Source: Streptomyces spiramenti (lineage in GTDB: Bacteria > Actinomycetota > Actinomycetes > Streptomycetales > Streptomycetaceae). Taken from it: a stretch of DNA of 38,219 bases. The DNA is taken from NCBI RefSeq assembly GCF_012034385.1, contig NZ_JAAVJB010000024.1, positions 1 through 38,219 of the forward strand, read 5' to 3'. How positions within the stretch are numbered: the first letter of the stretch is position 1; every line of letters starts with the position of its first letter. Of this stretch, positions 6,964 to 34,433 are shown one piece after another. Below the pieces are notes generated by a model. It was not told the origin of the DNA, did not search any database, and saw only the letters and a list, made by a program, of their open reading frames with translations. The position numbers and the translations under genes are program-made.

Positions 6964-7058
6964 GTCCGGCGGACAGCCGGTCGAGCGGCGGCCGGGTCTC
7001 GGGCGCCGCCCCGGGCGCCGGAAGGACGGGCGGCCCTGTCGGTGCGGTGCGCCGGCGG

Positions 7059-8057: not shown

Positions 8058-8103
8058 GGTGGCTCCTGGGTCGTTGCGTCGGCGCGGCGAATGCCGGAAG
8101 TTG

Positions 8104-8127
8104 GAATTATATGCATTGGCAAGTATC
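8104..8127 (-). promoter_or_regulatory. AT-rich promoter patch before ornithine carbamoyltransferase
   Basis: On the minus strand the patch reads ATACTTGCCAATGCATATAA and contains a perfect TATAAT (plus-strand 8106-8111), 49 bases upstream of the ATG, in otherwise very GC-rich DNA. No good -35 lies at the right distance, which would fit an activator-dependent promoter. The TGCAT core also resembles half-sites of the ARG boxes bound by ArgR in streptomycetes, but I cannot score this. Confidence 0.4.
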
Positions 8128-8349
8128 GCTATGCGGCTCGGGGTCGTGTCTGTCCCGCGCCTCGGCCCCGGGGCGTGGCGACCTCGGACCATGTTGGGGA
8201 CGCGCGTCGGATCGGCTCGCGGCGTCGGATGCGGTCAGCTGCACGGCGGAGGGGCCCCTCATGCCGTGCCGTATTCGGGTCTTCCCGACAACGCGGCAGG
8301 TGGCCGTGGCCGGCGTCGCGGGCCCGGCGGGGGGGTCTCCGACACGCTC

Positions 8350-9585: not shown

Positions 9586-9653
9586 GTCCCTCATCCTGCC
9601 CGGCCGCGCCCGCTCACGCCCCCGATCCGGACGCGCGCCCGCCGTGCCGCCCG

Positions 9654-21289: not shown

Positions 21290-22429
21290 TCACGCATCGA
21301 CGATCGTCTGCACCGTACGGCTGCCGCCGGCGTCGGTGGCCGTGACCCGCAACGAGACCGTGCCCCCGGCAGGTGGGTTGTCGATCCCGACGGAGTCGGC
21401 GTCCCCTGCCCCGTCGTGGACGGTCGTCCGGCTCGCGCCGCCGTCGACCGAGCTCTCCACCACCAGCGACACCGCGTCCACGCCCTGCGGTGCCGGCGGC
21501 AGCGGGAAGCCCCGCTCGTCCGCGGGTGCGGTGTTGTCCAGCGCCGGCTCGGGCCGGAACCGGACGATCGGCGGACCGTCGATCGGCTCGAACTCGTCCG
21601 CCGTCACCGAGGTGCAGCGAGGCGAGCGAGAGGAGGAAATCCGGGTCCGGAGCGGTGTCACCGATGGCCAAGGGAAGGGCCACCGCGCCGAAGCCGAGGG
21701 CGCCGGAGCCCGCGGTCACCTTCCGGTCCAGCGCACCCGCCACGTCCACCCGGCCGGTGCCTGCCGCGGCGTCCCCTCGACCTCGGCCGCGGAACCCACC
21801 AGGGCCGCCTTGAGCTGCTCGCCGCTCCACTCCGGGTTCTGCTGCACCATCAGCGCCGCAGCCCCGGCCACCACGGGCGTCGCCGTCGAGGTGCCGGACA
21901 TCCCCGTGTCCCCGTCGGCAACGGGCGTCGCGACCGTCTCCAGTGCGCTGCCGATGGCCGCCGCCGCGGCCATCTCCACGCCCGGCGCGGCGAAGTCGGG
22001 CTTCAGCCGGGCGTCGACCTCCGTCGGACCGACGAGGAGACCCGGCCGGCACGTCCTCGTGGTCGACGGCACCGACCGTCACCGCCGGCGCCGCGACACC
22101 CGGGGAGTCCACCGTCCCGCTGTCGGGGCCGGAGTTGGCCGCGGCCACCGCGTCCAGGTTGCCCGGACCTCGACGCCGTCCTCACCGCGCACCTCCCGCG
22201 CGACCGAGCGGGAACCGTCCTCGTGGCTGACGATCATCGGCAGGCCGGGGAAGGAGGAGCACGTCTTCCGCGAGAGCTCCGTGACGTCGAGGAGCGCGAG
22301 GTCTACCGCGCCGGCCGCAGTCCCCGGGGCGCGCCGACCGGCCTCCTTGACCGTGCCCCGGGGGCACGGTGTGGGCTGCTGGTGTGCGTCCGCCGTCCGC
22401 AACGCCACGAGGGCGGGACGGCGACGCAC
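21290..22429 (-). pseudogene. decayed subtilase (S8 serine protease) gene
   Basis: Similarity to subtilisin-like proteases runs on the minus strand through alternating frames, implying about four frameshifts. In order: a segment near 22370-22250 (DLALLDVTEL); NLDAVAAANSGPDSGTVDSP near 22165-22105; then in the other frame LKPDFAAPGVE and the catalytic-Ser motif GMSGTSTATPVVAGAAALM near 22010-21840; then TGRVDVAGALDRKV back in the second frame near 21750; and finally a C-terminal domain ending at 21290. The N-terminal part with the catalytic Asp and His is absent, since the DUF4177 gene begins at 22456. No single frame can make an active enzyme. Indel sequencing errors could explain frameshifts but not the missing N-terminus. 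Confidence 0.85.
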
Positions 22430-22455
22430 CTCGCGACCATGGAAGGGACTCGCTG

Positions 22456-22650
22456 ATGACGACCCGCTGGGAGCACAAGGTGCTCACCTACAAACTCGGC
22501 TGGAAGGCCTTCGACTACGCGCAGATCGAACGCGACCTGACCGTGCTCGGCGGCGAGGGCTGGGAGGCGGTCGGCACCCTCGCCCCGAGCTTCGGCGCGG
22601 GCCAGGCCATCGAGATCGCGGTCATCGCGAAGCGGCCGGTCGGCGACTGA
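22456..22650 (+). CDS. DUF4177-like small protein
   Basis: A 64-residue protein with the pattern WEHKVLTYK...LGGEGWEAVGTLAPS...IEIAVIAKRP, typical of small DUF4177 proteins whose function is not established. The ATG at 22456 is preceded by GGAAGGGA; an upstream GTG at 22369 would add residues overlapping the subtilase remnant and is rejected. It is a monocistronic unit between a pseudogene and a terminator. There is no signal peptide or membrane segment. Confidence 0.85.
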   Translation: MTTRWEHKVLTYKLGWKAFDYAQIERDLTVLGGEGWEAVGTLAPSFGAGQAIEIAVIAKRPVGD

Positions 22651-22655
22651 CGGCG

Positions 22656-22688
22656 AGGTCGGCCGGTGCGGGCCGCACCGGCCGACCT
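22656..22688. terminator. bidirectional hairpin terminator
   Basis: A perfect 14-bp stem, AGGTCGGCCGGTGC and its complement, with a 5-base loop, begins 5 bases after the DUF4177 stop and faces the convergent epimerase gene. Confidence 0.82.
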
Positions 22689-22746
22689 GCCTCGGCCGTC
22701 GGCCTGTCTCCCGAACGCCCGTCGAGCGCCGCCGCGCTGCCGGCGA

Positions 22747-23682
22747 CTACCGCCCGTCGCCGAGGAACCACCGGACGGTCCGCTCCAGTCCCTCGCGCAG
22801 CGGGACGGGCCCGACGTCGGGGAAGAGGGCGCGCAGTCGGGTGCCGTCGGCCTGGGAGTGCGGGACGTCCCCGGGCCGCACGGGATGGTGCTCGCGCGGC
22901 AGGGCCGTGCCCATGACCGACTCCAGTTCGGTGATCAGCTCGGTGAGCGGTGTCCGCCCGCCGTGCGCGAGGTTGACCGGTTCGGCCGAGGTCACCCCGC
23001 GCAGTGCGGCCTGCGCGAGGACCTGGCAGACGGTCCCGACGTAGGTGAAGTCGCGGGTCTGGCTGCCGTCCCCATGGACCGCGAGCGGCCTGCCGGTGAT
23101 GGCAGCCGCGATCCAGGCGGGTACGACGGCGGCGTAGGCGTGCCCGGCGGACTGCAGCGGCCCGTAGACGTTGAAGAAGCGGAACGGCAGCACCGGCAAC
23201 CCGTAGCAGTGGTGGTACGCCGCGAGGTAGGACTCGGCGGCCAGCTTGCCGACCGCGTACGGACTCATGGGGCGCGGACGCAGCTCCTCGTGTTTCGGGA
23301 GGTGGGGGTTGGCGCCGTAGACCGAGGAGGACGAGGCGGCGATCGTCTGCGTTCCCCCCGCGCGCCGCGCCGCCTCCAGCACGGCCAGCGTGCCCGTCGC
23401 GTTGGCGTGGTGACTGGCGACCGGGTCCGTCACCGAGCGCGAGACGGAGGGGAGCGCCGCCAGGTGGACGACCGAGTCGACACCGTCCAACGCGGTGTCG
23501 AGCAGCCCGGGGTCCAGGACGCTGCCCTCCAGGAAACGAACCGGCAGCCCGGATATGTTCTCCCGGGAGCCGGTCGAGAGGTCGTCCACGACCCGTATCT
23601 CGGAGACCGTCGCCATCCCCGACAGGTGCCGCACGAGGTTGCCGCCGATGAAACCGGCGCCGCCGGTGACCGTGATCTTCAC
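22747..23682 (-). CDS. NAD-dependent nucleotide-sugar epimerase/dehydratase
   Basis: A 311-residue extended short-chain dehydrogenase. The NAD-binding glycine motif TGGAGFIGG is at 6-14, SSSSVYG with the catalytic Ser near 118-123, and the catalytic Tyr142-x3-Lys146 in SPYAVGKLAAESY. RFFNVYGP follows. This pattern fits UDP-sugar C4-epimerases of the WbpP/TviC kind, although decarboxylases and dehydratases share the fold. The GTG start at 23682 has AAGGG upstream. It lies 15 bases downstream of the UDP-sugar 6-dehydrogenase gene, so the pair is an operon. Such pairs typically make a uronic-acid sugar nucleotide. The donor could serve the GT4-type enzyme at 31.5-32.7 kb or a surface polymer; only the former is in view. 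Confidence 0.9.
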   Translation of the reverse strand: MKITVTGGAGFIGGNLVRHLSGMATVSEIRVVDDLSTGSRENISGLPVRFLEGSVLDPGLLDTALDGVDSVVHLAALPSVSRSVTDPVASHHANATGTLAVLEAARRAGGTQTIAASSSSVYGANPHLPKHEELRPRPMSPYAVGKLAAESYLAAYHHCYGLPVLPFRFFNVYGPLQSAGHAYAAVVPAWIAAAITGRPLAVHGDGSQTRDFTYVGTVCQVLAQAALRGVTSAEPVNLAHGGRTPLTELITELESVMGTALPREHHPVRPGDVPHSQADGTRLRALFPDVGPVPLREGLERTVRWFLGDGR

Positions 23683-23697
23683 GCTGTGCCCTTCGGG

Positions 23698-25008
23698 TCA
23701 GAGGATGTCGATGTTGTCGCCGCCGAGCCGACGCCGGCAGTCCAGCACCCACGTCGAACAGGCCGCGACGGCCGCGTAGTCGAACGCGTCGTGGTCGGTG
23801 AGGAGCACCACCGCGTCGGCGCCGGACAGCTCCTCGGCGGTGGCCTCCACCCGGCGGACCTCCTGCAGGGCGTCCGCCTGCGCGGGCGCCGGGTGGAGAT
23901 GCGGGTCGGCGGCGCGGACGTCCGCGCCCATCGCCCGGAGGGACTGCGTCACCCGCGCCGCGGGCGTCTCCCGGGCGTCGCTGGTGTTGGGCTTGTACGC
24001 GAGCCCGAGCAGCAGGATGCGGGACCCCTTGACCGGCTTGCCCCGCTGGTTGAGCCCCTGGACGAGTCGCTGGACCACGTAATCCGGCATGTGGCTGTTG
24101 ATGTCGTTGGCGAGTTCCACGAACCGGAAGGGTCGGCCCGACGTCCGCTCCGCCCACCAGGACAGGTACGACGGGTCGATCGGCAGGCAGTGGCCGCCCA
24201 CACCGGGGCCCGGGTCGAACCGCAGGTATCCGAACGGCTTGGTGGCGGCAGCGTCGATCGCCTCCCACACGTCGATGCCCAGCTCGTGTGCGAACATCGC
24301 GAGCTCGTTGACCAGCGCGATGTTGACGTGCCGGAAGGTGTTCTCCAGCAGTTTCGTCAGTTCGGCGGCGCCGCAGCCGCTGACGGGCACCACCGTGTCG
24401 ACGATCGAGCCGTAGAACTCCTCGACCTGCTTCAGGGACCGCTCGTCCACCCCGGAGACCACCTTCGGCGTGTTCTCCAGCCGCCAGCGGGTGTTCCCGG
24501 GATCGATGCGTTCCGGGCTGTACCCCAGGTGGAAGTCCCTGCCGACCCGGAGACCGGACGCGGACTCCAGGATCGGGCCCACCAGCTCCTGCGTCGTCCC
24601 CGGGTAGGTCGTCGACTCCAGCACCACGGTCGCCCCCGGCCGGAGGAAGCCGCCGAGCATCCGCGCCGATCCCGCGACGTGCGACAGGTCGGGCCGCCGC
24701 TCCCGCAGCGGCGTGGGCACCGTGATCACCGCGATGTCGAAGCCGCCGCAGTCGACCGGATCGCTGCTCGCGCGGTACGCGCCGGAGGCGAGCTGCGCGC
24801 CCAGTCGCTCGGACGAGATGTCCTCCACGTACGAGCTGCCCAGGGCGAGTTGACCGACCCGCCCCTCGTCCACGTCGAAGCCCACCACGCGGTGGCCCGC
24901 CTCCGCGGCCCGCACCGCCAGTGACAGGCCCACATAGCCCTGGCCCGCCACCACCACCCGGCCACGGGCAGCGGACGAACCGGCGGTTCCGGGTGCGCCG
25001 GCGGTCAT
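23698..25008 (-). CDS. UDP-sugar 6-dehydrogenase (UDP-GlcNAc/ManNAc dehydrogenase type)
   Basis: Two-step NAD-dependent oxidation of a sugar nucleotide at C6 to the uronic acid. The 436-residue protein has the Rossmann motif AGQGYVGLSLA (21-31), SPERIDPG at 164-171, the ELTKLLENTFRHVNIALVNE helix at 216-235 with its conserved Lys and Asn, and the catalytic Cys274 in GPGVGGHCLPIDP. The C-terminal domain has LGLAYKPNTSDARETPA. These features fit the WbpA/WbpO/TviB branch more than UDP-glucose dehydrogenase, but substrate choice cannot be fixed by eye. The ATG at 25008 has GGAGG upstream. It is co-transcribed with the epimerase and lies downstream of the dimethylformamidase-like gene, about 240 bases away. 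Confidence 0.92.
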   Translation of the reverse strand: MTAGAPGTAGSSAARGRVVVAGQGYVGLSLAVRAAEAGHRVVGFDVDEGRVGQLALGSSYVEDISSERLGAQLASGAYRASSDPVDCGGFDIAVITVPTPLRERRPDLSHVAGSARMLGGFLRPGATVVLESTTYPGTTQELVGPILESASGLRVGRDFHLGYSPERIDPGNTRWRLENTPKVVSGVDERSLKQVEEFYGSIVDTVVPVSGCGAAELTKLLENTFRHVNIALVNELAMFAHELGIDVWEAIDAAATKPFGYLRFDPGPGVGGHCLPIDPSYLSWWAERTSGRPFRFVELANDINSHMPDYVVQRLVQGLNQRGKPVKGSRILLLGLAYKPNTSDARETPAARVTQSLRAMGADVRAADPHLHPAPAQADALQEVRRVEATAEELSGADAVVLLTDHDAFDYAAVAACSTWVLDCRRRLGGDNIDIL

Positions 25009-25119
25009 CCGACGCCTCCGGTGCCAGTACCTTCGCGGCAGGCCGCCGCGGCGTGGGCGGATGGCTCTGTGTCCGGCATACGCGTTCCCAACCGGGCGGA
25101 GCCGTCCGCCCACGTCGAT

Positions 25120-25165
25120 TGTCGGATGTAGGGGCCCGCGGCTGTCGGATGTAGGGGCCCGCGGC
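25120..25165. repeat. perfect 23-bp tandem duplication
   Basis: Two adjacent identical 23-bp units (25120-25142 and 25143-25165), each containing GTCGGATGTAGGGGCCCGC, lie in the 240-base gap between the dimethylformamidase-like gene and the dehydrogenase gene. They are 112-157 bases upstream of the dehydrogenase start. GGGCCC within each unit is palindromic. They may be regulatory half-sites or a recent slippage duplication. Confidence 0.85.
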
Positions 25166-25248
25166 AGCCCGGGGGTTTCGGGGATTTCGGACGGCGCACG
25201 CGGCGCCGGGTGCGTCCCCGCGCCGGTCCGCCCAGCAGCCCCGGCGGG

Positions 25249-26673
25249 TCAGGACAGCAGGTCGACCACGTTGCGGCTGATCGTCTCCACCGCCGGGTCC
25301 AGGCGCAGCAGCCGTGCCCAGTCCACCGTGGCGGCGTTGAAGACCGTGCCGCCCCGGGTGTAGAGGCCGAAGGTCGCCGCCCGGCCCGGGTCCGGATCCT
25401 CCCGGGCGGCGAAGTGCCAGCCGGACGCGGCAGGCAGGTCGGCGAGGCCCAGGATCGTGAAGTCGTCGGGCGTCCCGTCCGCGCCCGTCGCGACGGCCCG
25501 CCCCCGCCGGTCGCGGCGGTGAGCGGCGCCGTCGCACTCGTAGCCCACGAGGGCGTGCGCGGCGCCCAGCAGGTCGCCGTCGCGCAGCCCTGTGCCCTCG
25601 AACAGCTCGTGGTCGCAGTGCTGCACGGTGTACCCGGTGGGGGCGCGGAGCCCCTCCCAGTGGCCACCCCCGTTGCGGTAGCTGACACCGGTCACCGCGT
25701 TCTCCGGTTCCGTCTCCCACCAGTGGTCGGGCGCGCCTCTGAGGGTGTCCACGTCGACACCCCTGGGCGCACCCGGCGGGTACTTCGCGCACCGGACCGT
25801 CGAGCCGTCGTCCGCCACCTCCACCCGCCACCAGCAGGTGTTCCCACCGAAGACGCCGATGTTCCCGCCCTGGTCGCGGAAGGCGGTGACATGCCGTCTG
25901 CTGCGCGCGGTCCAGTACTCGTCGTGGCCGGCGGACAGCAGCAGCCGGTATCCGTCCGTGAGGTCCGCCCTCTCGTGGAGATCCAGGTCGGTGCAGTAGT
26001 CCACGGTCCGACCGGACGACTCCAGCCACGCGATGAACGGGGCGTCCCAGTGGGCGAAGGTCTGACGCGGTGTCCGGAGGTCGTGGGCGTCGGGGAACCC
26101 CTTCACCGGCCCGCCGATGCCACCCCCGGGCCGACGCAGGGTCACCACCGCCTCCCGCGGTGGCCTTCCGGCGGAGTGCGCGGAGCCGTAGAGGCTGCCG
26201 CCGCCGCTGCGGTTGTACGCGTGGTAGGTGAGGACCGGCACCTTGTACAGGATCCGGGCCCGCCGCGCCGGCTCACGCGCCCTCACCACGAACAGCAGTC
26301 GCGAGCGACGGGCGTCGAGCTGCGCCGCGTCCGCCGGAGCCGTTCCGGGACATCCCGCGCGGGATGCGCCGGTCGCCGCCGGGCTCAGCACTGCGACGTA
26401 CACACCCGACGGCCAGTCCCCGGGAACGGCCACGTCGTGACCGGGCCAGCACCAGTCCTCGTCGTGACGGCCCGGAGGAACGTAGCGTCCCGCTCCGTAC
26501 ACGCTGCCCATGTGGCGGGGGCGGACACCGCAGCGGAAGAAGTCGGCGCGGAACGCCGGCGCGCCGGTCGACACGTGCAGCCGCAGCGTCTCACCCGCGC
26601 GAACACTCGGCCGCCCGGGATACCCGTCGACCTGCTCTGCGGCGCGGGGGGCGTCGCTCGTCGCGTCGGGCAC
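25249..26673 (-). CDS. N,N-dimethylformamidase large-subunit-like protein
   Basis: A 474-residue protein resembling the C-terminal region of the N,N-dimethylformamidase beta (large) subunit. Visible family features are VLTYHAYNRSGGGSLY near residue 170, LHERADLTDGYRLLLSAGHDEYWT near 255, GGNIGVFGGNTCWWRVEV near 290 and WETEPENAVTGVSYRNGGGHW near 345. The family is a metal-dependent amidohydrolase fold, but many actinobacterial members have no assigned substrate. The GTG at 26673 is preceded by GGAGG at good spacing. No signal peptide is visible. It is divergent from the peptide operon and heads a minus-strand run with the UDP-sugar genes. It might hydrolyse an amide in the pathway product; that is speculation. 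Confidence 0.82.
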   Translation of the reverse strand: MPDATSDAPRAAEQVDGYPGRPSVRAGETLRLHVSTGAPAFRADFFRCGVRPRHMGSVYGAGRYVPPGRHDEDWCWPGHDVAVPGDWPSGVYVAVLSPAATGASRAGCPGTAPADAAQLDARRSRLLFVVRAREPARRARILYKVPVLTYHAYNRSGGGSLYGSAHSAGRPPREAVVTLRRPGGGIGGPVKGFPDAHDLRTPRQTFAHWDAPFIAWLESSGRTVDYCTDLDLHERADLTDGYRLLLSAGHDEYWTARSRRHVTAFRDQGGNIGVFGGNTCWWRVEVADDGSTVRCAKYPPGAPRGVDVDTLRGAPDHWWETEPENAVTGVSYRNGGGHWEGLRAPTGYTVQHCDHELFEGTGLRDGDLLGAAHALVGYECDGAAHRRDRRGRAVATGADGTPDDFTILGLADLPAASGWHFAAREDPDPGRAATFGLYTRGGTVFNAATVDWARLLRLDPAVETISRNVVDLLS

Positions 26674-27061
26674 CGGGCCCTCCAGGGGAAGTGGCGGAGG
26701 AGGACCCTCCGGGCGAACAACGAAGACCGCGCCAAAGTATGGCGAGTGGTGATCTTCGACGGAACACGGCTATCCGGACGTATTGCGCGTTCCGTGACGG
26801 CGCCGGGGATCGGCGCGAAAGCGCCGCGGGCCCGCTGACCCCGCCGCGTACCGACCCCCGACGCTGCTCACTGTCGGTGGCCACCACATAACCCCGGGAC
26901 GGCAGAATGTCGCGGAACGGGCGCGCGCCGGTGGCCAGTTCCGGGACGGCGGCTCGCCCGTCTCGTTGGAAGACGCCCACGCGGCCGTGATGATGAGCCC
27001 TGCCGCACGTCGAGTGACCGCCGTGAGGGCGGGATCCGGCGTTCAGGAGAGGAGTTTGGCG
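26674..27061. promoter_or_regulatory. 388-base divergent intergenic region before the peptide operon
   Basis: The region separates the divergent dimethylformamidase-like gene and the short peptide gene and should hold both promoters. It contains a hairpin with a GAAA tetraloop and 6-bp stem (26811-26826), followed by the palindrome GCGGGCCCGC (26826-26835). An AT-richer patch around 26715-26790 may hold the minus-strand promoter. No consensus -35/-10 pair is convincing. A 27-codon frame at 26893 onward lacks a ribosome site and is not called. Confidence 0.5.
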
Positions 27062-27142
27062 ATGAGCGAAGACATCGAGCAGGTCACGCCCGACGAACTG
27101 CCGGAGCTTCCGCTGCTGGTCGACCTCCCGGCCTGCGAGTGA
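27062..27142 (+). CDS. 26-residue peptide, candidate RiPP precursor
   Basis: A very short ORF with a strong ribosome site (GGAGAGGAG, about 8 bases before the ATG), immediately upstream of five modification-type genes. The first 12 residues are acidic and polar (four Asp/Glu) and look like a leader or recognition stretch. The last 14 residues are LPELPLLVDLPACE, with three Leu-Pro pairs and a single Cys as the second-last residue. No known RiPP core motif (FxSxx, lanthionine Ser/Thr/Cys runs, thiopeptide) is present. The Cys or the amide backbone could be the YcaO target, and Pro, Leu, Val or Asp the hydroxylation targets. It was too short for standard gene callers. The role is inferred from its position, strong ribosome site and neighbours. 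Confidence 0.75.
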   Translation: MSEDIEQVTPDELPELPLLVDLPACE

Positions 27143-27157
27143 ACGTCCCGGTGTGAC

Positions 27158-27203
27158 GCGCGCGGTGGCCGACCGGGTCACCGCGCGCCACTTCTGGCGC
27201 GCG
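27158..27203 (+). promoter_or_regulatory. two overlapping, mutually exclusive hairpins (candidate attenuator)
   Basis: Hairpin 1: GCGCGCGGTG (27158-27167) pairs perfectly with CACCGCGCGC (27179-27188), extendable inward by one wobble and two GC pairs. Hairpin 2: CGCGCGCCA (27182-27190) pairs perfectly with TGGCGCGCG (27195-27203) around a CTTC loop. They share bases 27182-27188, so only one can form at a time. They lie between the peptide stop (27142) and the ribosome site of the HExxH gene, the place where RiPP operons often attenuate transcription to keep precursor above enzymes. Confidence 0.65.
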
Positions 27204-27236
27204 CCGGGATCACGCCGGCGGAAGGGGAACGGTCGC

Positions 27237-28298
27237 ATGCACATCGGTCCGGACGCGGCGGGTGCCGCACTCGATCAAGCGGCGCTTGGCCGCCGCACGC
27301 TCGCCGCGCTGCGCCGCGCCGGCCTGGTGGACGCGATGCCGGCGCCACGGGACGCGACGTCGGACACCGGCGGCGGCACGGCCACCCGGACCCGCGAGGC
27401 CCTCACGGCGTCCGGTCTCGAACTCACGGGGTCCGACGTCTCCCACCCGGCGGTGATCGACGTCGCGCACACCGCCCAGCGCGCACTGCGGGCCGACACC
27501 CTCACCGCCCCGCGGCGCGCCGAACTCGCGACAGCGCTCGCCCGTGCCGTCGCACTGGCCCGCTCCGCCACGCCGACCGATCACCACGGCTGGTCGGTGG
27601 AAGCGGCCGGACCCCAGTCACACCTCGACCGTGCCGTCGTCCGCGCCCTGGCAGGCGTGCCCCCGGACTCACCCGGCGGAGCCCAGGACTGTGCCGTCAC
27701 CCCCTGGCAGGACGCGCACCTCCGGGTGCTGACCGACGCCGCCGGACTGCTGCGCGCCGCGTGGCCGGAGATGCTCGACGAACTGACCCGCACGGTCCGC
27801 CAGGTCGTGCTGCTCCGGGGAACGGCCATCGAGGGCTTCACCGACTTCACCGTCCACGGCGCGCTGTTCCTCCACCGCGACCGCCTCGCGCCGGGGGCCG
27901 ACGCGCCACCCGGCGCCGACGGGGGCCTCGGTCTCGCGGAGGCCCTGGTGCACGAGGGCACCCACGTGCGGTGCAACGCCGCTCTGGCGTCGACACCCTT
28001 CTGGGAGCGGGCCGCCGACCGGGTCGCTCCCGTCCCCACGCCGCTGCGCGCCGACCCCCGGCCGCTGGGGGGTCTCTTCCACCAGATGGTGGTCCTCTCC
28101 CGCAGCGCGACCTTCCTCGGGCGGCTCCTCGACTCCGGCTCCCGGCCCGGCATCGACCCGGGGCCGCTGCGCGAGCGTCACCGGCACCATCGGGACGCCG
28201 CGGCGCGGGCCGCCGCCACCCTCCACGCCCACCGGTCCTCCCTCACCGACACCGGGCGCGGACTCCTGGCGCAGGTCGCGGCCGAGGGCACCGGATGA
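27237..28298 (+). CDS. HExxH-motif protein, probable 2-oxoglutarate-dependent peptide beta-hydroxylase
   Basis: A 353-residue protein with the motif ALVHEGTHVRCNA, where His239-Glu240-x-x-His243 is a metal-binding HExxH. The surroundings, FTDFTVHGALFLHRDRL before it and GGLFHQMVVLSRSATFLGRLL after it, fit the 'HEXXH motif' family found in actinobacterial peptide-modification clusters, members of which are annotated as alpha-ketoglutarate-HExxH peptide beta-hydroxylases rather than proteases. No signal peptide. The ATG at 27237 has GGAAGGGG upstream; an earlier GTG at 27153 overlaps the hairpins. The stop overlaps the YcaO start (ATGA), so the two are translationally coupled. A protease role, cutting leader from core, is the main alternative. 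Confidence 0.82.
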   Translation: MHIGPDAAGAALDQAALGRRTLAALRRAGLVDAMPAPRDATSDTGGGTATRTREALTASGLELTGSDVSHPAVIDVAHTAQRALRADTLTAPRRAELATALARAVALARSATPTDHHGWSVEAAGPQSHLDRAVVRALAGVPPDSPGGAQDCAVTPWQDAHLRVLTDAAGLLRAAWPEMLDELTRTVRQVVLLRGTAIEGFTDFTVHGALFLHRDRLAPGADAPPGADGGLGLAEALVHEGTHVRCNAALASTPFWERAADRVAPVPTPLRADPRPLGGLFHQMVVLSRSATFLGRLLDSGSRPGIDPGPLRERHRHHRDAAARAAATLHAHRSSLTDTGRGLLAQVAAEGTG

Positions 28299-29563
28299 GC
28301 ACGCCCCGCTCACCCACCCGGCCCTGGGCGGCGGAGCTGTTCCACCCCTTCCCGCAGGCGCCGGACGTCGTCTTCGCCCGGGTCGCGGCCCGCTCCGCGC
28401 TCTTCACCGCCGGCACCACGACGAGCACCCGCGCGGACACCGGCACGGGCACCGGCGCGGGTACCGGCACCGCCGGTGCGGGCGGGCCGGGCAGGTCCGA
28501 CGGGTCGGACGTGGTCACCGGCAGCGCGGCCGGGCACGACCCGGACGACGTCTCGCCGCGGGCCACCGGCGAACTCGTCGAACGCATCGGGAACATCACC
28601 GCCGGACGGGCCGCCGAGGCAGAGCTACGCGTGACCGCCAGCTACCACGAACTGCGGCTGGCCGGACGGCCCGCGCTGGACCCCGCCCCGCTGGTGGGCC
28701 GGCCGGGCACCGCCGTCGACGCTCGGGAAACGCCCCGGCTGTGGGTCACCGGCCGGTCCCTGTCGACCGGGCGTGAACTGCTCGTCCCCGCCGGAGCGGT
28801 CTACCTGCGGCACCGGCCACCTGCGGAACCGGACATCGGGACGGGCTCCACCGGGCTGGCGGCTCACCCGGACCCGATCGCGGCCACTCACCACGCCGTA
28901 TGGGAGATCCTGGAACGCGACCTGATCCGCCGAAGCTGGTACGGGGAAGCCGGCGCACCGACCGTCGCGCCGCACCTGCGGCTGCGGCCGACACTGCGGG
29001 CGTCGCTGGCCGCGCTGGGGCTGACCGCGACGCTTCTGCTGGTCCCCGCGCCGGCGGGCGTCGGCTGCGTCGCGGCCTGCCTGCACGACGCCAACGGCGA
29101 GGGCCAGACGTTCGGCGCCGCCTGCGGCCCCGAAGGCCACGGGCCGACAGCCGAGCGGGCCGCCGAGAAGGCGGTGTACGAGGCCCTGATGGTGCGGTGG
29201 AGCATGGGCACGCGCGTCGCCCGTCGCACCTGGCAGTCCTGGGCGGGGACGACACCACCCCGTACCGCGCTCCACCACGCGCTGTGGACGTTCCACCGCC
29301 AGGACAGCCTGCGGCTGTGGCTCGCGGACGCACCCGCCGCCTCGTCGGGGACCCGGCGGCAGCGCGCCCTGCCCGCTCCCGCCGCCGTTCTCGCCGACCA
29401 CACCGGACAGGAGGTGGTGGCCGTCCCGACGCCGTCGCGACAGTCGCTGGAGACCGGGCTCCAGGTGATGCGCGTCGTGGCACCGGGAGCGCTCCCGCTC
29501 CCTGCCGGTCCCCGCGGGCCGGGCGGAGCGCTGCGCACCCACCGCCCGCACCCCTTCGGGTGA
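28295..29563 (+). CDS. YcaO-domain protein
   Basis: YcaO proteins use ATP to phosphorylate peptide amides, giving azolines, thioamides or amidines. The 422-residue protein has the three ATP/Mg-binding segments in diverged form: NITAGRAAEAELRVTASYHE (100-119), GSTGLAAHPDPIAATHHAVW then EILERD (184-209), and FGAACG...AAEKAVYEALMVRW (273-302). The C-terminus ends THRPHPFG, close to the Pro-rich PHPFP-type ends of azoline-forming members. Residues about 41-70 are a Gly/Thr-rich insertion. No E1-like, ocin-ThiF, dehydrogenase or TfuA partner is encoded in the window, so the reaction type is open. It is coupled to the HExxH gene by ATGA overlap, 73 bases upstream of the methyltransferase gene. Confidence 0.85.
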   Translation: MSTPRSPTRPWAAELFHPFPQAPDVVFARVAARSALFTAGTTTSTRADTGTGTGAGTGTAGAGGPGRSDGSDVVTGSAAGHDPDDVSPRATGELVERIGNITAGRAAEAELRVTASYHELRLAGRPALDPAPLVGRPGTAVDARETPRLWVTGRSLSTGRELLVPAGAVYLRHRPPAEPDIGTGSTGLAAHPDPIAATHHAVWEILERDLIRRSWYGEAGAPTVAPHLRLRPTLRASLAALGLTATLLLVPAPAGVGCVAACLHDANGEGQTFGAACGPEGHGPTAERAAEKAVYEALMVRWSMGTRVARRTWQSWAGTTPPRTALHHALWTFHRQDSLRLWLADAPAASSGTRRQRALPAPAAVLADHTGQEVVAVPTPSRQSLETGLQVMRVVAPGALPLPAGPRGPGGALRTHRPHPFG

Positions 29564-29636
29564 CCCGCCGCCCTCGACCGACCGGGCCGACCGGCCCCAC
29601 CGACCCCGCAGCCACCCACCAGGAGGACCGTCCCCG

Positions 29637-30377
29637 ATGCCCGGTCAGGAATCGCCCCACTACGCGGCCACCTTCGCCGCCAGGTACGACGATTGGTTCC
29701 CCTCACCCGTCACGGACAGCACCGTCGAGCTGCTCGCCGCCCTCGCGAAGACCGCCGGCGACGGTCCCGTCCTCGAACTCGGCTCCGGCACCGGCCGGGT
29801 GGCCCTCCCGCTGGCAGCGCGAGGTCTCGACGTGCACGGCGTCGAGGGCGCGCCCGAGATGACCGAACGCCTGCGCGCCAAACCGGGCGGCCACGACATC
29901 ACGGTCACCGCGGGCGACTTCAGCAGCGTCCCGGTCGACGGCTCCTTCGCCATGGTCTACGTCGTCTCCGGCGGGTTCTTCGAACTCCCCACCCAGCAGT
30001 CCCAGGCCCGCTGCTTCGCCGCCGCGGCGGCGAGACTGCTGCCGGGCGGACTCTTCGTGCTCGACGCGCACGTCCCCGAGGCGCTTGCCGCACCGGAAGC
30101 CGCCCTCCACGTCGTCCCGATCGAAGGCGGCATGACGGTACGGATGCGCACCATCGACCGCGCCTCCCAGCGCTACTCATCGCACTACCTCGTCCTCGAC
30201 GGCAACGGCGTCCACCACGTGCCGGTGTCCTTCCGCTACGCGTCCGCGGGGGAACTCGACCTCATGGCCGCGATGGCGGGGCTGCGACTGCGGAACCGGT
30301 ACGGCGGTTGGTCGGGAGAGGCGTTCACGGCGGCCAGCGCCTACCACGTCTCCGTGTACGAACTGCCCGTCACCTGA
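29637..30377 (+). CDS. class I SAM-dependent methyltransferase
   Basis: A 246-residue methyltransferase with a Rossmann fold: motif I VLELGSGTGRVALPLAARG near residues 45-63, the acidic VHGVEGAPEM loop near 67-76, ITVTAGDFSSVPV near 90 and LLPGGLFVLDAHVPEAL near 138. Length and order suit small-molecule or peptide N/O-methyltransferases. The ATG at 29637 has AGGAGG about 10 bases upstream. It follows YcaO by 73 bases on the same strand. In this operon it could methylate the peptide terminus, a hydroxyl made by the oxygenases or the sugar; the sequence does not tell which. Confidence 0.88.
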   Translation: MPGQESPHYAATFAARYDDWFPSPVTDSTVELLAALAKTAGDGPVLELGSGTGRVALPLAARGLDVHGVEGAPEMTERLRAKPGGHDITVTAGDFSSVPVDGSFAMVYVVSGGFFELPTQQSQARCFAAAAARLLPGGLFVLDAHVPEALAAPEAALHVVPIEGGMTVRMRTIDRASQRYSSHYLVLDGNGVHHVPVSFRYASAGELDLMAAMAGLRLRNRYGGWSGEAFTAASAYHVSVYELPVT

Positions 30378-30510
30378 GCACCCCGTCCACCGCCGCCCCA
30401 CCCTCCACGGCCCCGGCCCGGCGCGGGAGAACCGGCGCCGCGGCGGTGGGGCCGCCGTCGTCCGGGCGCGGTGGCACCGGCACCGCCCCCATCCCGATGA
30501 GGAGGCACCG

Positions 30511-31494
30511 ATGTCCGAGCCCGCCCCGCACGCCGAGTCCCGCCCGACCGGGCGCCACGACCCCCTGGAGATCCACCCTGGCCGGGCGTCGCTCGACGTG
30601 CCCTTCCGACGTGTGGTGGACGACGGCCTGCTCGTCATCGTCAGAAACGGGTTGCAGCTGCTGGACGCACTCGAACCGCTGCGCCGCGCCACCCGGCTCG
30701 CCGCCGCCGAGACGCTGCCGCCCACTGCCGCCCGCGCCCTGGAACGCACCGGGATCGAGGGCCTTCACACGGTCGTGGGCATCGAGGAAGCCATGGCCCT
30801 GCGCACCCGCATGGAGACGGCACTCCGGCCGTCCGCCGCACAGGCGTGCCTGGCGTTCGCCGCCACGGCCGGCACCGGGGAACCGCGGGTCCACGTCAGC
30901 CGCCACTTCGGCGTCAGGACGATGCTGCCGCACCGGGTCGTCGCCGAACGGGACGACCTCGGCCCGCTCGCGGGCTTCGTCGTGCCGACCGCGCCCCACG
31001 TCGACTCGTGGTTCAACACCACCCTCAACTCCGTCAACCTGTGGATGGCACTGGGCCGCGTCCGTCCCGGAAACGGACTCCTCGTCTACCCCGACCTCTA
31101 CCGTGCGCCGATCCGCCGGGCCGGCTACGACGTGGCCCCCGGCCAGCAGCTCGGCACGCCCGTCAGCTTCGCCCTCGACCCCGGCGACATCCTGCTGTTC
31201 TCGGGCGACCACGTCCACGCGTCGGAGGCCAACACCACCGACGAGACGCGGGTCGTCCTCACCAAACGCATCAGCGTCGGCGCCCCCAGATACAACCCCG
31301 AGGGCAGCGGCTGGGTGCCCTACGACGACGCCCGCCTGCTGCGCGGCCCGCTGGCACCGTTGGCCTCCCTGCGCTCGCGCGCCACCGCGGCGTACGGGCG
31401 GCACCTCCTGCGCGCCGCGCTGCGCCGCCGCCCCGGGTACGAACGGGCGCGCGCACACCACCCGACCTCCGGACCGAACGGGCCCACAACCTGA
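30511..31494 (+). CDS. phytanoyl-CoA-dioxygenase-like Fe(II)/2-oxoglutarate oxygenase
   Basis: A 327-residue protein with the iron-binding pattern of PhyH-type oxygenases. His163-x-Asp165 lies in PHVDSWFN, a distal His (234 or 236) in FSGDHVHASEAN, and Arg247, expected to bind 2-oxoglutarate, in TTDETRVVLTKRI. The middle segment SVNLWMALGRVRPGNGLLVYP is typical. It would hydroxylate or otherwise oxidise an unactivated carbon. The ATG at 30511 has GAGGAGG upstream. Its stop overlaps the next start by one base (TGATG), so it is coupled to the glycosyltransferase. A hydroxyl placed by this enzyme could be the glycosylation site. The last 50 residues are Arg-rich. Confidence 0.85.
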   Translation: MSEPAPHAESRPTGRHDPLEIHPGRASLDVPFRRVVDDGLLVIVRNGLQLLDALEPLRRATRLAAAETLPPTAARALERTGIEGLHTVVGIEEAMALRTRMETALRPSAAQACLAFAATAGTGEPRVHVSRHFGVRTMLPHRVVAERDDLGPLAGFVVPTAPHVDSWFNTTLNSVNLWMALGRVRPGNGLLVYPDLYRAPIRRAGYDVAPGQQLGTPVSFALDPGDILLFSGDHVHASEANTTDETRVVLTKRISVGAPRYNPEGSGWVPYDDARLLRGPLAPLASLRSRATAAYGRHLLRAALRRRPGYERARAHHPTSGPNGPTT

Positions 31495-32684
31495 TGCGCA
31501 TCGCCTACCTGCACGCCGGGAGCATCCCGTCCGTCTACGCCAACGGCATTCACGTCATGCGCATGTGCGACGCGTTCACCGCCGCCGGACACGACGTCAC
31601 CCTCTACACGCTGCCCGGCACCCACCGGGCCGACGACCCGTACACCTACTACGGGGTCCGCCACCGCTTCCGCATCCGCCGAATCCCGCTGCCCGACGCC
31701 GATCCCGCCTCGCTCCGCGCCCGCGCGGCCCGGGTGCGCGCGCTGCTGGTGGCGGAGACGCCCGACCTCGCCTACGGACGCGACCCCTACGCCGTCCTCG
31801 CGGCGGCCGATGTCGCACCCGTCGTGTACGAGAGCCACCACGTGTGGGACGACCGGGACGCGCTGGCGACGGAGAGCCGGCTGTTCGCCCATCCGGCACT
31901 CCGTCGGGTGGTGGTCATCACCCACGCCCTCGCCGGTGATCTCCAGACCGCCCACGCCGGCACGGGCCTGCTGCCGCTCCGCGTAGCCCCCGACTGCGCC
32001 GACGTGCCCGCCGCGCACGGGGCTTCCCCCGCACCGGAGTTGCCGGGTCGGACCGGGGTGCCGCGCGTCGGCTATGTCGGGCACCTCTACGAGGGGCGCG
32101 GGATCGACCTCATCCTGGAACTGGCCGCCGTACTGCCCGGCTTCGACTTCCACCTCGTCGGCGGCACCCCCGGGGACCGGGCACACTGGGAAGCCCCTTG
32201 CCGACTGCCCAACGTGCACTTCCACGGCCACCGGCCACCGGGCGCCGTCCACGCCTACGTCTCCGCCTTCGACGTGGTGCTGGCCCCCTACCAGCAGCGG
32301 GTGTACACCGCCGGCCGCAGCGCCGAGACCGGCCGCTGGGCCTCGCCGATGAAGGTCTTCGAGTACATGGCCCACGGCAGGGCCATGATCGCCTCCGACC
32401 TGCCTGTGCTGCGCGAGGTGCTCCACGACCGGGTCAACTGCCTGCTGCGCCCGCCCGACGACACCCGGGCGTGGGCGGACGCCGTCAATGAGCTCGTGAC
32501 GGACGGGACGCTGCGACGGCAGCTCGGGCGGCAGGCACGGAGCGAGGTCCTCGACCGCTACACCTGGCGCCGCCGGGCCGACGACGTCCTCGCGGGAGTC
32601 TTCACGGGCTGGGGCGAGGCGCCCCCCACGGCGGGGCGGACGCCGACGCCCAAGCCGAAGCCGACGGCATCGGAGGCAGGGTGA
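31494..32684 (+). CDS. GT4-like glycosyltransferase
   Basis: A 396-residue retaining-type GT-B glycosyltransferase of the GT4 kind. The N-terminal domain starts RIAYLHAGSIPSVYANGIHV and contains YESHHVWDD. The C-terminal nucleotide-sugar domain has VGYVGHLYEGRGIDLILELA near 200, FHGHRPPGAVHAYVSAFDVVLAPY near 245 and the donor-binding E-x7-E region SPMKVFEYMAHGRAMIASDL near 285. The last 25 residues are a Pro/Lys-rich tail. The ATG at 31494 overlaps the oxygenase stop by one base, so it is coupled. It is the last gene of the peptide operon, before a hairpin. The donor sugar may come from the UDP-sugar genes at 22.7-25.0 kb; that link is inferred. Confidence 0.9.
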   Translation: MRIAYLHAGSIPSVYANGIHVMRMCDAFTAAGHDVTLYTLPGTHRADDPYTYYGVRHRFRIRRIPLPDADPASLRARAARVRALLVAETPDLAYGRDPYAVLAAADVAPVVYESHHVWDDRDALATESRLFAHPALRRVVVITHALAGDLQTAHAGTGLLPLRVAPDCADVPAAHGASPAPELPGRTGVPRVGYVGHLYEGRGIDLILELAAVLPGFDFHLVGGTPGDRAHWEAPCRLPNVHFHGHRPPGAVHAYVSAFDVVLAPYQQRVYTAGRSAETGRWASPMKVFEYMAHGRAMIASDLPVLREVLHDRVNCLLRPPDDTRAWADAVNELVTDGTLRRQLGRQARSEVLDRYTWRRRADDVLAGVFTGWGEAPPTAGRTPTPKPKPTASEAG

Positions 32685-32687
32685 CAC

Positions 32688-32704
32688 TCCGCCCGCCGGG
32701 CGGA
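32688..32704 (+). terminator. compact hairpin after the glycosyltransferase gene
   Basis: TCCGCCC-GCC-GGGCGGA is a perfect 7-bp stem with a 3-base loop, starting 3 bases after the glycosyltransferase stop. It probably ends the peptide operon. The following 270 bases hold no gene I can support. Confidence 0.55.
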
Positions 32705-32974
32705 CGATCACCCCTCCGCGGCCGTCCGACCGGCTCCGGGGTCCCCTCGGAAGCCCTCGTGGCGAGACGCCCCAGGTTCGGGGGCCGCGCGGCGGCGACT
32801 CCCCGCCCACGGCGCCGGGTTCAGGGCGCCCCGCACCGGACATGCTCGGAGCGTGCCGGTCGGGCCCACACGTGGCCCGGGGTGCCGCGGCTCCGCCACG
32901 CCGGCCGCTCTCGCGCCCCCCACCGCGGCCACCGTTCGATCGGCGCTGCGCGTGCAGCGAGCAGGGAGGCAGTC

Positions 32975-33613
32975 GTGCCGGATTCGTACCGTGGACTCCT
33001 TCTCGACTTCGGAGGTGTCCTCACCACCCGGATGCGCTCGAACGGTGAGGCGTTCGAGCGGGCCGAGGGGCTGGAACCGGGTACGTACTTCGCCGCGTTG
33101 GGCTCGCACCCGGACGGGATCGCGGTCTACGCCGCACTTGAGGTGGGAGAGGCCACCCAGGAGGAGTGGAACCGTGTCATCGGCGGCATCCTCGGCATCG
33201 ACCCGACCGATCTCATGCGCCGGGCACTCGCCAACCTCCACCCGGAGCCAGCGATCGTCGCAGCGGCGCGGCGCGCCCGCGCGTCCGGTGTGAAGGTCGC
33301 GATGCTCAGCAACTCGTTCGGGCTGGAGCCCTACAACCCGTACGAGGACAAGGGCCTGTGGACGGACTGTTTCGACACCGTCGTCCTCTCTGAGCGCGAA
33401 GGGGTGCGAAAGCCCGCTCCGGAGATCTACCGACGCACGCTGGACGCCCTTGGCCTGACCGGGCCGCAGTGCGTCTTCGTGGACGATCGCGCGGGGAACC
33501 TGCCACCGGCGGAGGCGCTGGGCATCCGCACGGTCCACCACACGACCGACCCCGTGGCCACGGCCGGCCTCCTCGACTCGTTCCTCGCGGACAGCGACCC
33601 CGCGCCCGCGTGA
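32975..33613 (+). CDS. HAD-family hydrolase
   Basis: A 212-residue haloacid-dehalogenase-type phosphatase. Motif I LLDFGGVLT is at about 9-17, motif II MLSNSFG near 110, the Lys motif RKPAPEIYRRTLDAL near 147, and motif IV CVFVDDRAGNLPPAEALG near 170. The nucleophile position is Asp11; the usual second Asp two residues on is replaced by Gly, which in HAD subgroups favours non-phosphatase chemistry or altered specificity. The GTG at 32975 has GGGAGG upstream and matches the family start; the frame stays open to 32681, but those 98 residues are Arg-rich and unlike any domain. It lies 290 bases after the peptide operon and may be independent of it. Confidence 0.86.
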   Translation: MPDSYRGLLLDFGGVLTTRMRSNGEAFERAEGLEPGTYFAALGSHPDGIAVYAALEVGEATQEEWNRVIGGILGIDPTDLMRRALANLHPEPAIVAAARRARASGVKVAMLSNSFGLEPYNPYEDKGLWTDCFDTVVLSEREGVRKPAPEIYRRTLDALGLTGPQCVFVDDRAGNLPPAEALGIRTVHHTTDPVATAGLLDSFLADSDPAPA

Positions 33614-33653
33614 ACACGCCGCGCACGGCTGAACACGTCGGCCGCGGGCGTGC

Positions 33654-34433
33654 TCAGAGGAAGTTGTTCGGCCAGATCATCGTGCGCCACATGTGGGCGA
33701 CCGCCGAGCCGTCGAAGCCCAGCCCCTGCGCCGGCTGCCGGAAGTGACGTCCGACCACGTCCTCGAACTCACCGAACTCCACCTCGACGTCCGGGTCGAA
33801 GGTGTACACGTCGTTGACCGTGACCATGCGGGCCGACATGTACCAGCGGTGACGCCGCGCCTCGCGATACGCCTCCCGCGTGTGGGCCGGTGGCCGGTAC
33901 TCCGCGCCGAAGAACCCTTCGTACGCCTGCGGGTAGCCGTACCCCACCGTGTCGTCGGGGAAGAACCGGAGCACCTCGTGCTGCCGGATCGCCCAGGCGA
34001 CCTCCTCGTCCACGTAGGGCTCCACGAGCTGCGCTCCCCAGTGCCCGTGCTGACTCCGCAGCAGGCCCGCGACGGAGATGTCGTGCAGGAGGCAGGCCAG
34101 CACGACCTTCTCACCCATACCCTGCTCACGTGCCCGCCGTGCGCTCTGGAACATGTGCCGCACCGTGAACGGGTCCAGCGCCAGGCGAAGACGGAAGTAG
34201 TCCGCCAGGGTGGGCTGCTCTGGCATCCGCGGAAGGTCGGCGTTGTCGCCCATCATGAAGACCTCGTCCGGTTTCAGCGAAGCCAGCAGCTGGTCGCCGG
34301 GGAGGTGCTCCTTGGTGCCGAGGGTCGCGGCAGCGGGAGCGCGGATGACGCGGGAGTAGTTGTTCTGTCCGTGCGGCACCGTGAAGGGCCCTTCTGAGTG
34401 GTGAGACGGCCGAGACCAGCGCTCGACCAGCAC
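33654..34433 (-). CDS. HD-domain protein
   Basis: A 259-residue protein with an HD-domain pattern. The spaced ligands are His in VRHMFQSARRA, His-Asp in VVLACLLHDIS, His in QHGHWGAQLVEPYV and His in AIRQHEVLRFF. The order resembles mixed-valent di-iron HD oxygenases such as PhnZ and myo-inositol oxygenase as well as ordinary HD phosphohydrolases; I cannot decide. The second half has Trp/Tyr-rich segments (RHRWYMSARMVTVNDVYTF). The GTG start at 34433 has AGGAG 10 bases upstream; an internal GTG at 34379 is an alternative. It is convergent with the HAD gene. The substrate is unknown. Confidence 0.78.
   Translation of the reverse strand: MLVERWSRPSHHSEGPFTVPHGQNNYSRVIRAPAAATLGTKEHLPGDQLLASLKPDEVFMMGDNADLPRMPEQPTLADYFRLRLALDPFTVRHMFQSARRAREQGMGEKVVLACLLHDISVAGLLRSQHGHWGAQLVEPYVDEEVAWAIRQHEVLRFFPDDTVGYGYPQAYEGFFGAEYRPPAHTREAYREARRHRWYMSARMVTVNDVYTFDPDVEVEFGEFEDVVGRHFRQPAQGLGFDGSAVAHMWRTMIWPNNFL

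What the first reader, a model, noticed from the sequence alone, without database searches (positions are those of the whole stretch)
27062..32684. Candidate new RiPP gene cluster: peptide, HExxH, YcaO, methyltransferase, PhyH oxygenase, glycosyltransferase
Six same-strand genes, with ATGA and TGATG overlaps at two junctions, encode a 26-residue peptide followed by two different oxygenase-type enzymes, a YcaO, a methyltransferase and a GT4-like glycosyltransferase. YcaO and HExxH families are established in peptide modification. I know of no described RiPP class with this exact set, nor a characterised core like LPELPLLVDLPACE. The cluster logic and product are inference.
Basis: partly seen in the sequence, partly recalled or inferred. 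Interest (0 to 1): 0.93.

Follow-up and report, generated by a model that had tools for sequence, protein, structure and literature searches.

The report
Undescribed hydroxylase–YcaO RiPP peptide family
A 26-residue peptide gene, whose core recurs in 41 of 44 actinomycete gene clusters compared here (this one included), sits beside genes for enzymes predicted to hydroxylate, activate, methylate and glycosylate it, so the bacterium likely makes a modified peptide of a kind that our literature searches did not find described.

Summary
In detail: six same-strand genes at 27062-32684 encode a 26-residue peptide, an HExxH protein, a YcaO, a methyltransferase, a PhyH-type oxygenase and a GT4. Of 44 non-redundant loci of this YcaO family, 41 carry an intact peptide with the core [ED]LP[ED]xxLxxDxP. 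A DNA pattern for the core matched 12 of 295 genomes of the genus, all among the 14 with the YcaO and none of the 281 without. The frame is under purifying selection.

The HExxH protein has the fold of the alpha-ketoglutarate hydroxylase ChlB, not of a protease. No core holds Cys, Ser or Thr, and 11 of 41 whole peptides have none, so azoline formation on encoded residues cannot be the shared chemistry.

Best reading: an undescribed RiPP family in which the HExxH enzyme likely beta-hydroxylates a core residue, most likely the invariant Asp, and YcaO then acts there. Confidence that the peptide is a RiPP substrate is about 0.85; for the chemistry, about 0.3. The cluster also reaches upstream (22747-26673, minus strand) into sugar-nucleotide genes. 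Ten literature searches found no description; the supplement of one published YcaO survey could not be opened.

The parts
27062..27142 (+). 26-residue precursor peptide MSEDIEQVTPDELPELPLLVDLPACE; core ELPELPLLVDLP, tail ACE
   Evidence: ribosome-binding site, same place and core in 41 of 44 loci; purifying selection in frame
27237..28298 (+). alpha-ketoglutarate HExxH-type peptide hydroxylase (353 aa from ATG 27237; an upstream GTG at 27153 also opens the frame)
   Evidence: TIGR04267 above cut-off; profile match to ChlB HExxH domain 8s5f E 2.4e-8; Foldseek E 3.3e-10; HExxH in 33 of 33 relatives
28295..29563 (+). YcaO protein, ATP-dependent amide activation, not fused to a partner domain; C-terminus PHPFG
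   Evidence: PF02624 E 3.1e-34; SagD-type TIGR03604 93.6 bits, below its cut-off of 219; ExxER-type motifs invariant in 14 of 14; YcaO fold
29637..30377 (+). class I SAM methyltransferase
   Evidence: PF13649 E 1.8e-12; match in 40 of 44 loci
30511..31494 (+). PhyH-type Fe/2-oxoglutarate oxygenase; takes the place of a P450 found in sister clusters
   Evidence: PF05721 E 3.5e-7; H163, D165, H236, R247 invariant in 11 of 11 aligned
31494..32684 (+). GT4-type glycosyltransferase
   Evidence: PF13692 E 2.1e-19; match in 30 of 44 loci
25249..26673 (-). N,N-dimethylformamidase beta-subunit-like C-terminal domain protein, role unknown, likely part of the cluster
   Evidence: PF20254 E 1.6e-72; match in 12 of 44 loci
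23698..25113 (-). nucleotide sugar dehydrogenase, likely sugar-donor supply (start codon uncertain; the domain begins near residue 50)
   Evidence: TIGR03026 398 bits, above its cut-off; match in 7 of 44 loci
22747..23682 (-). NAD-dependent epimerase/dehydratase of a sugar nucleotide, likely sugar-donor supply
   Evidence: PF01370 E 9.9e-53; match in 26 of 44 loci

Best explanation
The locus encodes a 26-residue peptide with a conserved core next to an HExxH protein, a YcaO, a methyltransferase, a PhyH-type oxygenase and a glycosyltransferase, and it is likely a RiPP biosynthetic cluster in which those enzymes would modify this peptide. Proposed order, all inferred: (1) the acidic N-terminal part (IEQV..EELPE) is the likely docking sequence. 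(2) The HExxH enzyme, predicted to use Fe and alpha-ketoglutarate, likely beta-hydroxylates a core residue, most likely the invariant Asp of [VI]D[VIL]P. (3) YcaO, with ATP, would activate the neighbouring backbone amide and close it onto the new hydroxyl, giving a carboxylated oxazoline; an amidine is the main alternative. (4) The methyltransferase would cap a carboxylate, amine or hydroxyl. (5) PhyH (a P450 in sister clusters) would oxidise further and the GT4 would add a sugar whose donor the upstream dehydrogenase and epimerase likely supply. (6) Trimming would use a protease encoded elsewhere, or oxidative cleavage by the HExxH enzyme. Shown: genes, conservation, folds. Not shown: any reaction, its site, or the product. 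Odds: about 0.85 that the peptide is the substrate of a RiPP pathway, about 0.3 for hydroxylate-then-cyclise at Asp; the value below is for the whole statement as hedged.
For: Peptide with intact core in 41 of 44 non-redundant YcaO loci, several genera; 0 of 281 YcaO-negative genomes match the core pattern. Frame-specific purifying selection. With the peptide, HExxH is in cis in 39 of 41 loci and on another contig of the same genome in the other two, L044 and L057; the methyltransferase is in 40 of 41. L051's genome lacks both peptide in the held DNA and HExxH anywhere. A database protein of Streptomyces lasalocidi fuses the C-terminal half of the HExxH protein, motif included, to the YcaO. 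The peptide lies before HExxH in most loci but directly before YcaO in L044 and L057, and moves with HExxH behind a second methyltransferase in L043, L049 and L076, which speaks against a fixed leader or attenuator. HExxH fold is that of ChlB, whose relatives hydroxylate Asp, His, Phe, Gln or Pro. No Cys, Ser or Thr in any of 41 cores, none in 11 of 41 whole peptides. No TfuA gene in the whole genome, against thioamidation.
Against: No product, mass or reaction is known. The motif used for counting fixes some of the positions reported as invariant, though the three loci without it were also read with looser patterns. No protease and no dedicated transporter recurs as part of the core gene set. 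YcaO fold matches all YcaO chemistries alike. The genome does encode cyclodehydratase partner-type proteins on other contigs (C451, C204), so a partner in trans is not excluded. L057 has the peptide and YcaO with HExxH far away, so tight coupling of the two enzymes is not universal. Hydroxylation before YcaO cyclisation in this enzyme pair has no precedent in the papers seen here.
Confidence: 0.75

Rival explanations
1. YcaO makes an amidine (streptamidine- or bottromycin-like) with a nitrogen nucleophile, and the HExxH enzyme only decorates the peptide, or frees an end by oxidative backbone cleavage at the conserved small residue before LM[VI]D.
For: The streptamidine precursors also lack Ser/Thr/Cys-rich regions and are served by a stand-alone YcaO (PMC8442711, passages). 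Position 6 of the core is Ala or Gly in 39 of 41, and PflC/PosC cleave at Ala, Gly also allowing it (PMC12636437, passages).
Against: This window and its Embleya relative have Pro at that position, which does not fit the Ala/Gly cleavage. The ami genes (hydrolase, flavin dehydrogenase, Fec-type transporters) are not among the annotated genes of this cluster.
Confidence: 0.3
2. A classical azole-type pathway: YcaO cyclises encoded Cys, Ser or Thr, here the Cys of the tail ACE or the Thr of the leader.
For: The YcaO's only profile match among solved structures at E <= 0.001 is the heterocyclase TruD, and 19 of 41 peptides have a Cys, Ser or Thr in the tail. Partner-type proteins exist on other contigs.
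Against: 11 of 41 whole peptides have none of the three residues and no core has any; no partner protein is among the cluster genes scanned.
Confidence: 0.08
3. The small peptide is not a substrate but a small partner or regulator of the enzymes, which act on something else.
For: The whole peptide is conserved, including its acidic N-terminal half, with no hypervariable core as many RiPP classes show.
Against: YcaO and alpha-ketoglutarate HExxH families act on peptides in the characterised RiPP cases read here; the peptide's short length, start site and position are those of a precursor; no other conserved small peptide was seen upstream of HExxH in the 13 loci listed.
Confidence: 0.08
4. The family is already held, unnamed, in the 2021 RiPPER survey of stand-alone actinobacterial YcaOs, so it is not new as a sequence family.
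For: That survey collected short peptides within 8 kb of 1514 YcaOs (PMC8442711, passages).
Against: No held paper text contains any of six core strings; the supplements could not be opened, and the network it describes has peptides of 31-89 residues, longer than most here (24-32).
Confidence: 0.35

Closest known systems
alpha-ketoglutarate HExxH hydroxylases ChlB, PflC/PosC, PesO, BpmH
   Same: HExxH motif, TIGR04267, fold match to the ChlB domain; RiPP setting
   Different: Those seen here are fused to or paired with radical SAM, MNIO or nitrile-forming enzymes, not with YcaO; their peptides differ
Streptamidine (ami) family, stand-alone YcaO amidine RiPP
   Same: Unfused YcaO, short precursor, no Ser/Thr/Cys-rich core
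   Different: Precursors of 31-89 residues with other motifs; ami genes differ; no HExxH term in that paper's text
Azol(in)e peptides with TruD/LynD/McbD-type YcaO
   Same: YcaO family; TruD is the only solved sequence match
   Different: No Cys/Ser/Thr in the core; no partner protein among the cluster genes scanned
Bottromycins
   Same: Stand-alone YcaO, methyltransferases, Asp in the core (Asp O-methylation as told there)
   Different: One YcaO here instead of two; no radical SAM gene among the cluster genes scanned; other precursor
YM-216391-type phenyloxazole peptides (recalled, no call; one search found no paper)
   Same: Recalled precedent for beta-hydroxylating a residue before cyclodehydration
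   Different: Other hydroxylase and a macrocyclic Cys/Ser-rich core (recalled)

Membership tests
RiPP pathway (general) | Conserved genetically encoded precursor next to modifying enzymes | tested here: met
   41 of 44 loci; 0 of 281 YcaO-negative genomes match the pattern
RiPP pathway (general) | Modified product derived from the precursor | not testable with these tools
   No mass data
alpha-ketoglutarate HExxH hydroxylase | HExxH motif and ChlB-type fold | tested here: met
   33 of 33; profile E 2.4e-8; Foldseek E 3.3e-10, TM 0.62/0.69
alpha-ketoglutarate HExxH hydroxylase | Fe- and alpha-ketoglutarate-dependent hydroxylation | not testable with these tools
   Needs an assay
YcaO family | YcaO domain with conserved ATP-site acidic motifs | tested here: met
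   PF02624; ExxER-type motifs invariant in 14 of 14; fold
Azol(in)e-containing peptides | Cys/Ser/Thr in the core as cyclised residues | tested here: not met
   0 of 41 cores; 11 of 41 whole peptides have none
Azol(in)e-containing peptides | E1/ocin-ThiF-type cyclodehydratase partner | tested here: inconclusive
   None among the 9 cluster proteins scanned and none on this contig, but matches over the cut-off on contigs C451 and C204
Thioamitides | TfuA partner | tested here: not met
   PF07812: 0 matches in the whole genome
Bottromycins | Two YcaOs and radical SAM methyltransferases | tested here: not met
   One YcaO on this contig; no radical SAM match in the 9 cluster proteins
Streptamidine family | AmiA-type precursor with ami gene set | tested here: inconclusive
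   Gene set differs but no direct comparison with AmiD was made
Daptides | Daptide methyltransferase NF041820 | tested here: not met
   64.6 bits against curated cut-off 175

The most novel reading that the evidence does not exclude
A RiPP class in which the HExxH hydroxylase manufactures the nucleophile and a stand-alone YcaO then cyclises it: beta-hydroxylation of the invariant Asp, closure to a 5-carboxy-oxazoline, methyl capping, and glycosylation with a cluster-encoded sugar. This would let YcaO write backbone heterocycles at residues that carry no Cys, Ser or Thr.
Probability: 0.3. Interest if true: 0.86.

Novelty: new variant of a known kind. Interest (0 to 1): 0.68.

Why it matters
It gives a compact, testable RiPP system: three near-constant enzymes and a 24-32 residue peptide that lacks the residues YcaO usually cyclises, with 41 natural loci to compare. 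If the hydroxylase supplies the hydroxyl that YcaO closes, backbone heterocycles need not be limited to encoded Cys, Ser and Thr. Gene tables can miss the peptide: that of the Streptomyces microflavus plasmid (PLSDB's own table, which is incomplete) lists no gene where it lies.

Tried and rejected
A strict DNA pattern for the core matched 0 of 391 genomes because it fixed third bases; only 3 of the precursors in hand match it, so a looser one was used on the 295-genome set; the looser one was not rerun on the 391. YcaO alone as query in genome contigs found no relative; the 14-row alignment found 28 loci. The link between oxidase type (P450 or PhyH) and tail length looked strong (Fisher P 2.7e-5; 14 of 14 PhyH loci have 3-residue tails, 4 of 21 P450 loci have 3 or more) but the oxidase changes only once on the YcaO tree, so it is one event and I do not use it. 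Fold comparison cannot separate YcaO chemistries. A protease role for the HExxH protein was rejected on fold. Oxidative cleavage at Ala as the universal step was set aside because this window and L082 have Pro there. Rfam has no match at 22000-34000, so no known riboswitch or attenuator. Ten literature searches listed no paper on this gene set.
Full report
Observation. The HExxH gene most likely starts at the ATG 27237; the database copy of the protein has 353 residues (P0007), which fits that start. Families: HExxH TIGR04267, YcaO PF02624, class I methyltransferase, PhyH PF05721 and GT4. The window is the whole contig C166 of a 5.7 Mb, 474-contig assembly, so the cluster does not touch a contig edge. 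Genomes that the tool counts as the same genus have contigs whose lengths equal those of named Streptomyces records, so the source is a Streptomyces by that reckoning.

Chance. A search of 295 genomes of the genus with the YcaO found 14, this one included. Thirteen stretches of 19 kb (one of 14 kb) were fetched. Twelve of the 13 carry a short ORF with the core ELPE[LFY][AG]LM[VI]D[VIL]P upstream of the HExxH gene. A DNA pattern for that core, run over the same 295 genomes, matched 12, all inside the 14; the reversed control pattern matched none. The pattern was written from these loci, so the informative figure is 0 of 281 YcaO-negative genomes. The two YcaO-positive genomes without a match are this window, whose Pro/Leu variant the pattern excludes, and G225, where only a remnant (AAELPERALMTLYP) is left and no methyltransferase matches.

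Wider family. An alignment of 14 YcaOs brought 28 named loci: 19 Streptomyces, two Kitasatospora, two Actinoalloteichus, one each of Embleya, Streptosporangium, Actinomadura and Nocardiopsis, and one actinobacterial metagenome assembly. A sample of 391 genomes of the order held 11 with the YcaO, six of them not in the first sample; all six have the peptide, one being the same contig as a named locus. Two plasmid records add an Embleya and a Streptomyces microflavus cluster. After removing six duplicates of 50 loci (equal contig lengths), 44 remain; 41 have the intact core. The exceptions are L021 (decayed) and the Actinoalloteichus loci L050 and L051, which sit together on a long branch of the YcaO tree; L051's genome has no HExxH gene of this family. 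L020 and L036 are nearly identical and both were kept.

Peptide. In the 41 peptides (24-32 residues) core positions 2 L, 3 P, 7 L, 10 D and 12 P do not vary; position 6 is Ala in 37, Gly in 2, Pro in 2. The search motif fixes those five positions, but the only loci left out by it are the three above, which were also read with looser patterns. In-frame pN/pS over 32 distinct core sequences is 0.19, one base off 1.03, two bases off 6.6. The window's variant is real: Embleya sp. NBC_00896 has ELPELPLLIDLP, with 9 synonymous and 8 non-synonymous differences in 27 codons, the stop included. None of the 41 cores holds Cys, Ser or Thr; 19 have one in the tail, Ser directly after the last Pro in 18; 11 of 41 whole peptides have none at all.

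Constant enzymes. Among the 41 loci with the peptide, HExxH is in cis in 39; for L044 and L057 a gene of the same family lies on another contig of the genome, with no peptide or YcaO beside it. The methyltransferase is in 40 of 41; L044 lies near a contig end. Over all 44 loci, within about 9.5 kb of YcaO by tblastn: P450 21, PhyH 14, never both, neither 9; GT4 30; epimerase 26; sugar dehydrogenase 7; DMFA2_C 12; sulfotransferases (three queries pooled) 17; second methyltransferase 12. Some contigs end inside the cluster, so these are lower bounds. A database protein of Streptomyces lasalocidi joins the C-terminal half of the HExxH protein, motif included, to the YcaO (P0089, 569 aa), which suggests one pathway; whether that record is free of assembly error was not checked.

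HExxH enzyme. A 29-row alignment profile matches the solved ChlB HExxH domain (8s5f, E 2.4e-8) and, more weakly, 22nu (E 0.0038). The AlphaFold2 model (mean pLDDT 83) has five Foldseek matches below E 0.001: four chains of 8s5f and SjiH, 22ob; best E 3.3e-10, TM 0.62/0.69, rmsd 10.5. HExxH is kept in 33 of 33 proteins. Relatives hydroxylate Asp, His, Phe, Gln or Pro, and PflC/PosC also cleave the backbone at Ala (PMC12636437: abstract, sections 4 and 6, passages; PMC13060819: abstract and passages).

YcaO. ATP-site motifs and the C-terminus PHPFG are invariant in 14 of 14; the fused P0089 ends PHPLG. The profile's only solved match at E <= 0.001 is the heterocyclase TruD, E 1.3e-4. All 41 Foldseek matches of the model below E 0.001 are YcaO entries of several chemistries, so fold does not decide the reaction. 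The likeness of PHPFG to the PxPxP end of azoline-type YcaOs is recalled. TfuA is absent from the whole genome. Cyclodehydratase partner-type proteins are absent from this contig but present on contigs C451, beside the genome's other YcaO-like stretches, and C204.

PhyH. H163, D165, H236 and R247 are invariant in 11 of 11 aligned; reading them as the iron triad and the 2-oxoglutarate Arg is family knowledge, recalled.

Reading. A peptide this conserved, tied to HExxH and YcaO across genera, is best explained as the RiPP precursor. Because no Cys, Ser or Thr is shared, YcaO must use something else: a hydroxyl that the HExxH enzyme has made, or an amine. I favour the first, at the invariant Asp, but this is inference (about 0.3). 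Methyltransferase, PhyH/P450 and GT4 are tailoring steps by family knowledge, with the sugar genes at 22747-25113 as likely donor supply.

Novelty. Membership of azole peptides, thioamitides, bottromycins and daptides fails on a tested feature each; streptamidine is nearest in spirit (PMC8442711, passages) but was not compared by sequence. Other papers were seen only as passages: PMC4603692, PMC13174530, PMC7794033, PMC12257519. Searches of the open literature listed no paper with these core letters or this gene set. The RiPPER survey in PMC8442711 may hold the family as an unnamed network; its supplements could not be opened here. Hence 'new variant of a known kind'.

Noticed in passing
P0089 (Streptomyces lasalocidi, 569 aa): Database protein that fuses the C-terminal half of the HExxH hydroxylase, motif included, to the YcaO; its N-terminal half is missing in the record.
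   Followed up: partly
L021 (G225) 7019-7090: Decayed peptide remnant (AAELPERALMTLYP) before HExxH and YcaO, with no methyltransferase match: a cluster apparently in decay.
   Followed up: partly
L040 9017-9986: The HExxH gene matches in two frames, possibly a frameshift in gene or assembly.
   Followed up: no
L050, L051 (Actinoalloteichus): YcaO relatives with neither peptide nor HExxH in the held DNA; L051's genome has no HExxH of this family. An outgroup with some other role.
   Followed up: partly
L083 (Streptomyces microflavus NA06532 plasmid): The cluster lies on a 608-kb linear plasmid typed as mobilizable; the peptide is not in the (incomplete) gene table.
   Followed up: partly
L043, L049, L076: Peptide and HExxH have moved behind the second methyltransferase, so gene order in the family is not fixed.
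   Followed up: no
window 21290-22429 (-): Three short ORFs next to the epimerase gene; the middle one matches the C-terminal part of a subtilase. Perhaps a broken or frameshifted protease gene; not mended.
   Followed up: no
G000:C451 (L084): A 20-kb contig of the same genome with two weak YcaO-like stretches and three cyclodehydratase partner-type matches: probably a separate azoline-type cluster.
   Followed up: no
window 78-2739 (+): EccB and EccE genes of a type VII secretion system at the contig start.
   Followed up: no
window 7059-10098 (-): Ornithine carbamoyltransferase next to arginine deiminase, an arginine deiminase pathway.
   Followed up: no
window 25249-26673 (-): A DMFA2_C protein of unknown role recurs in 12 of 44 clusters.
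   Followed up: no
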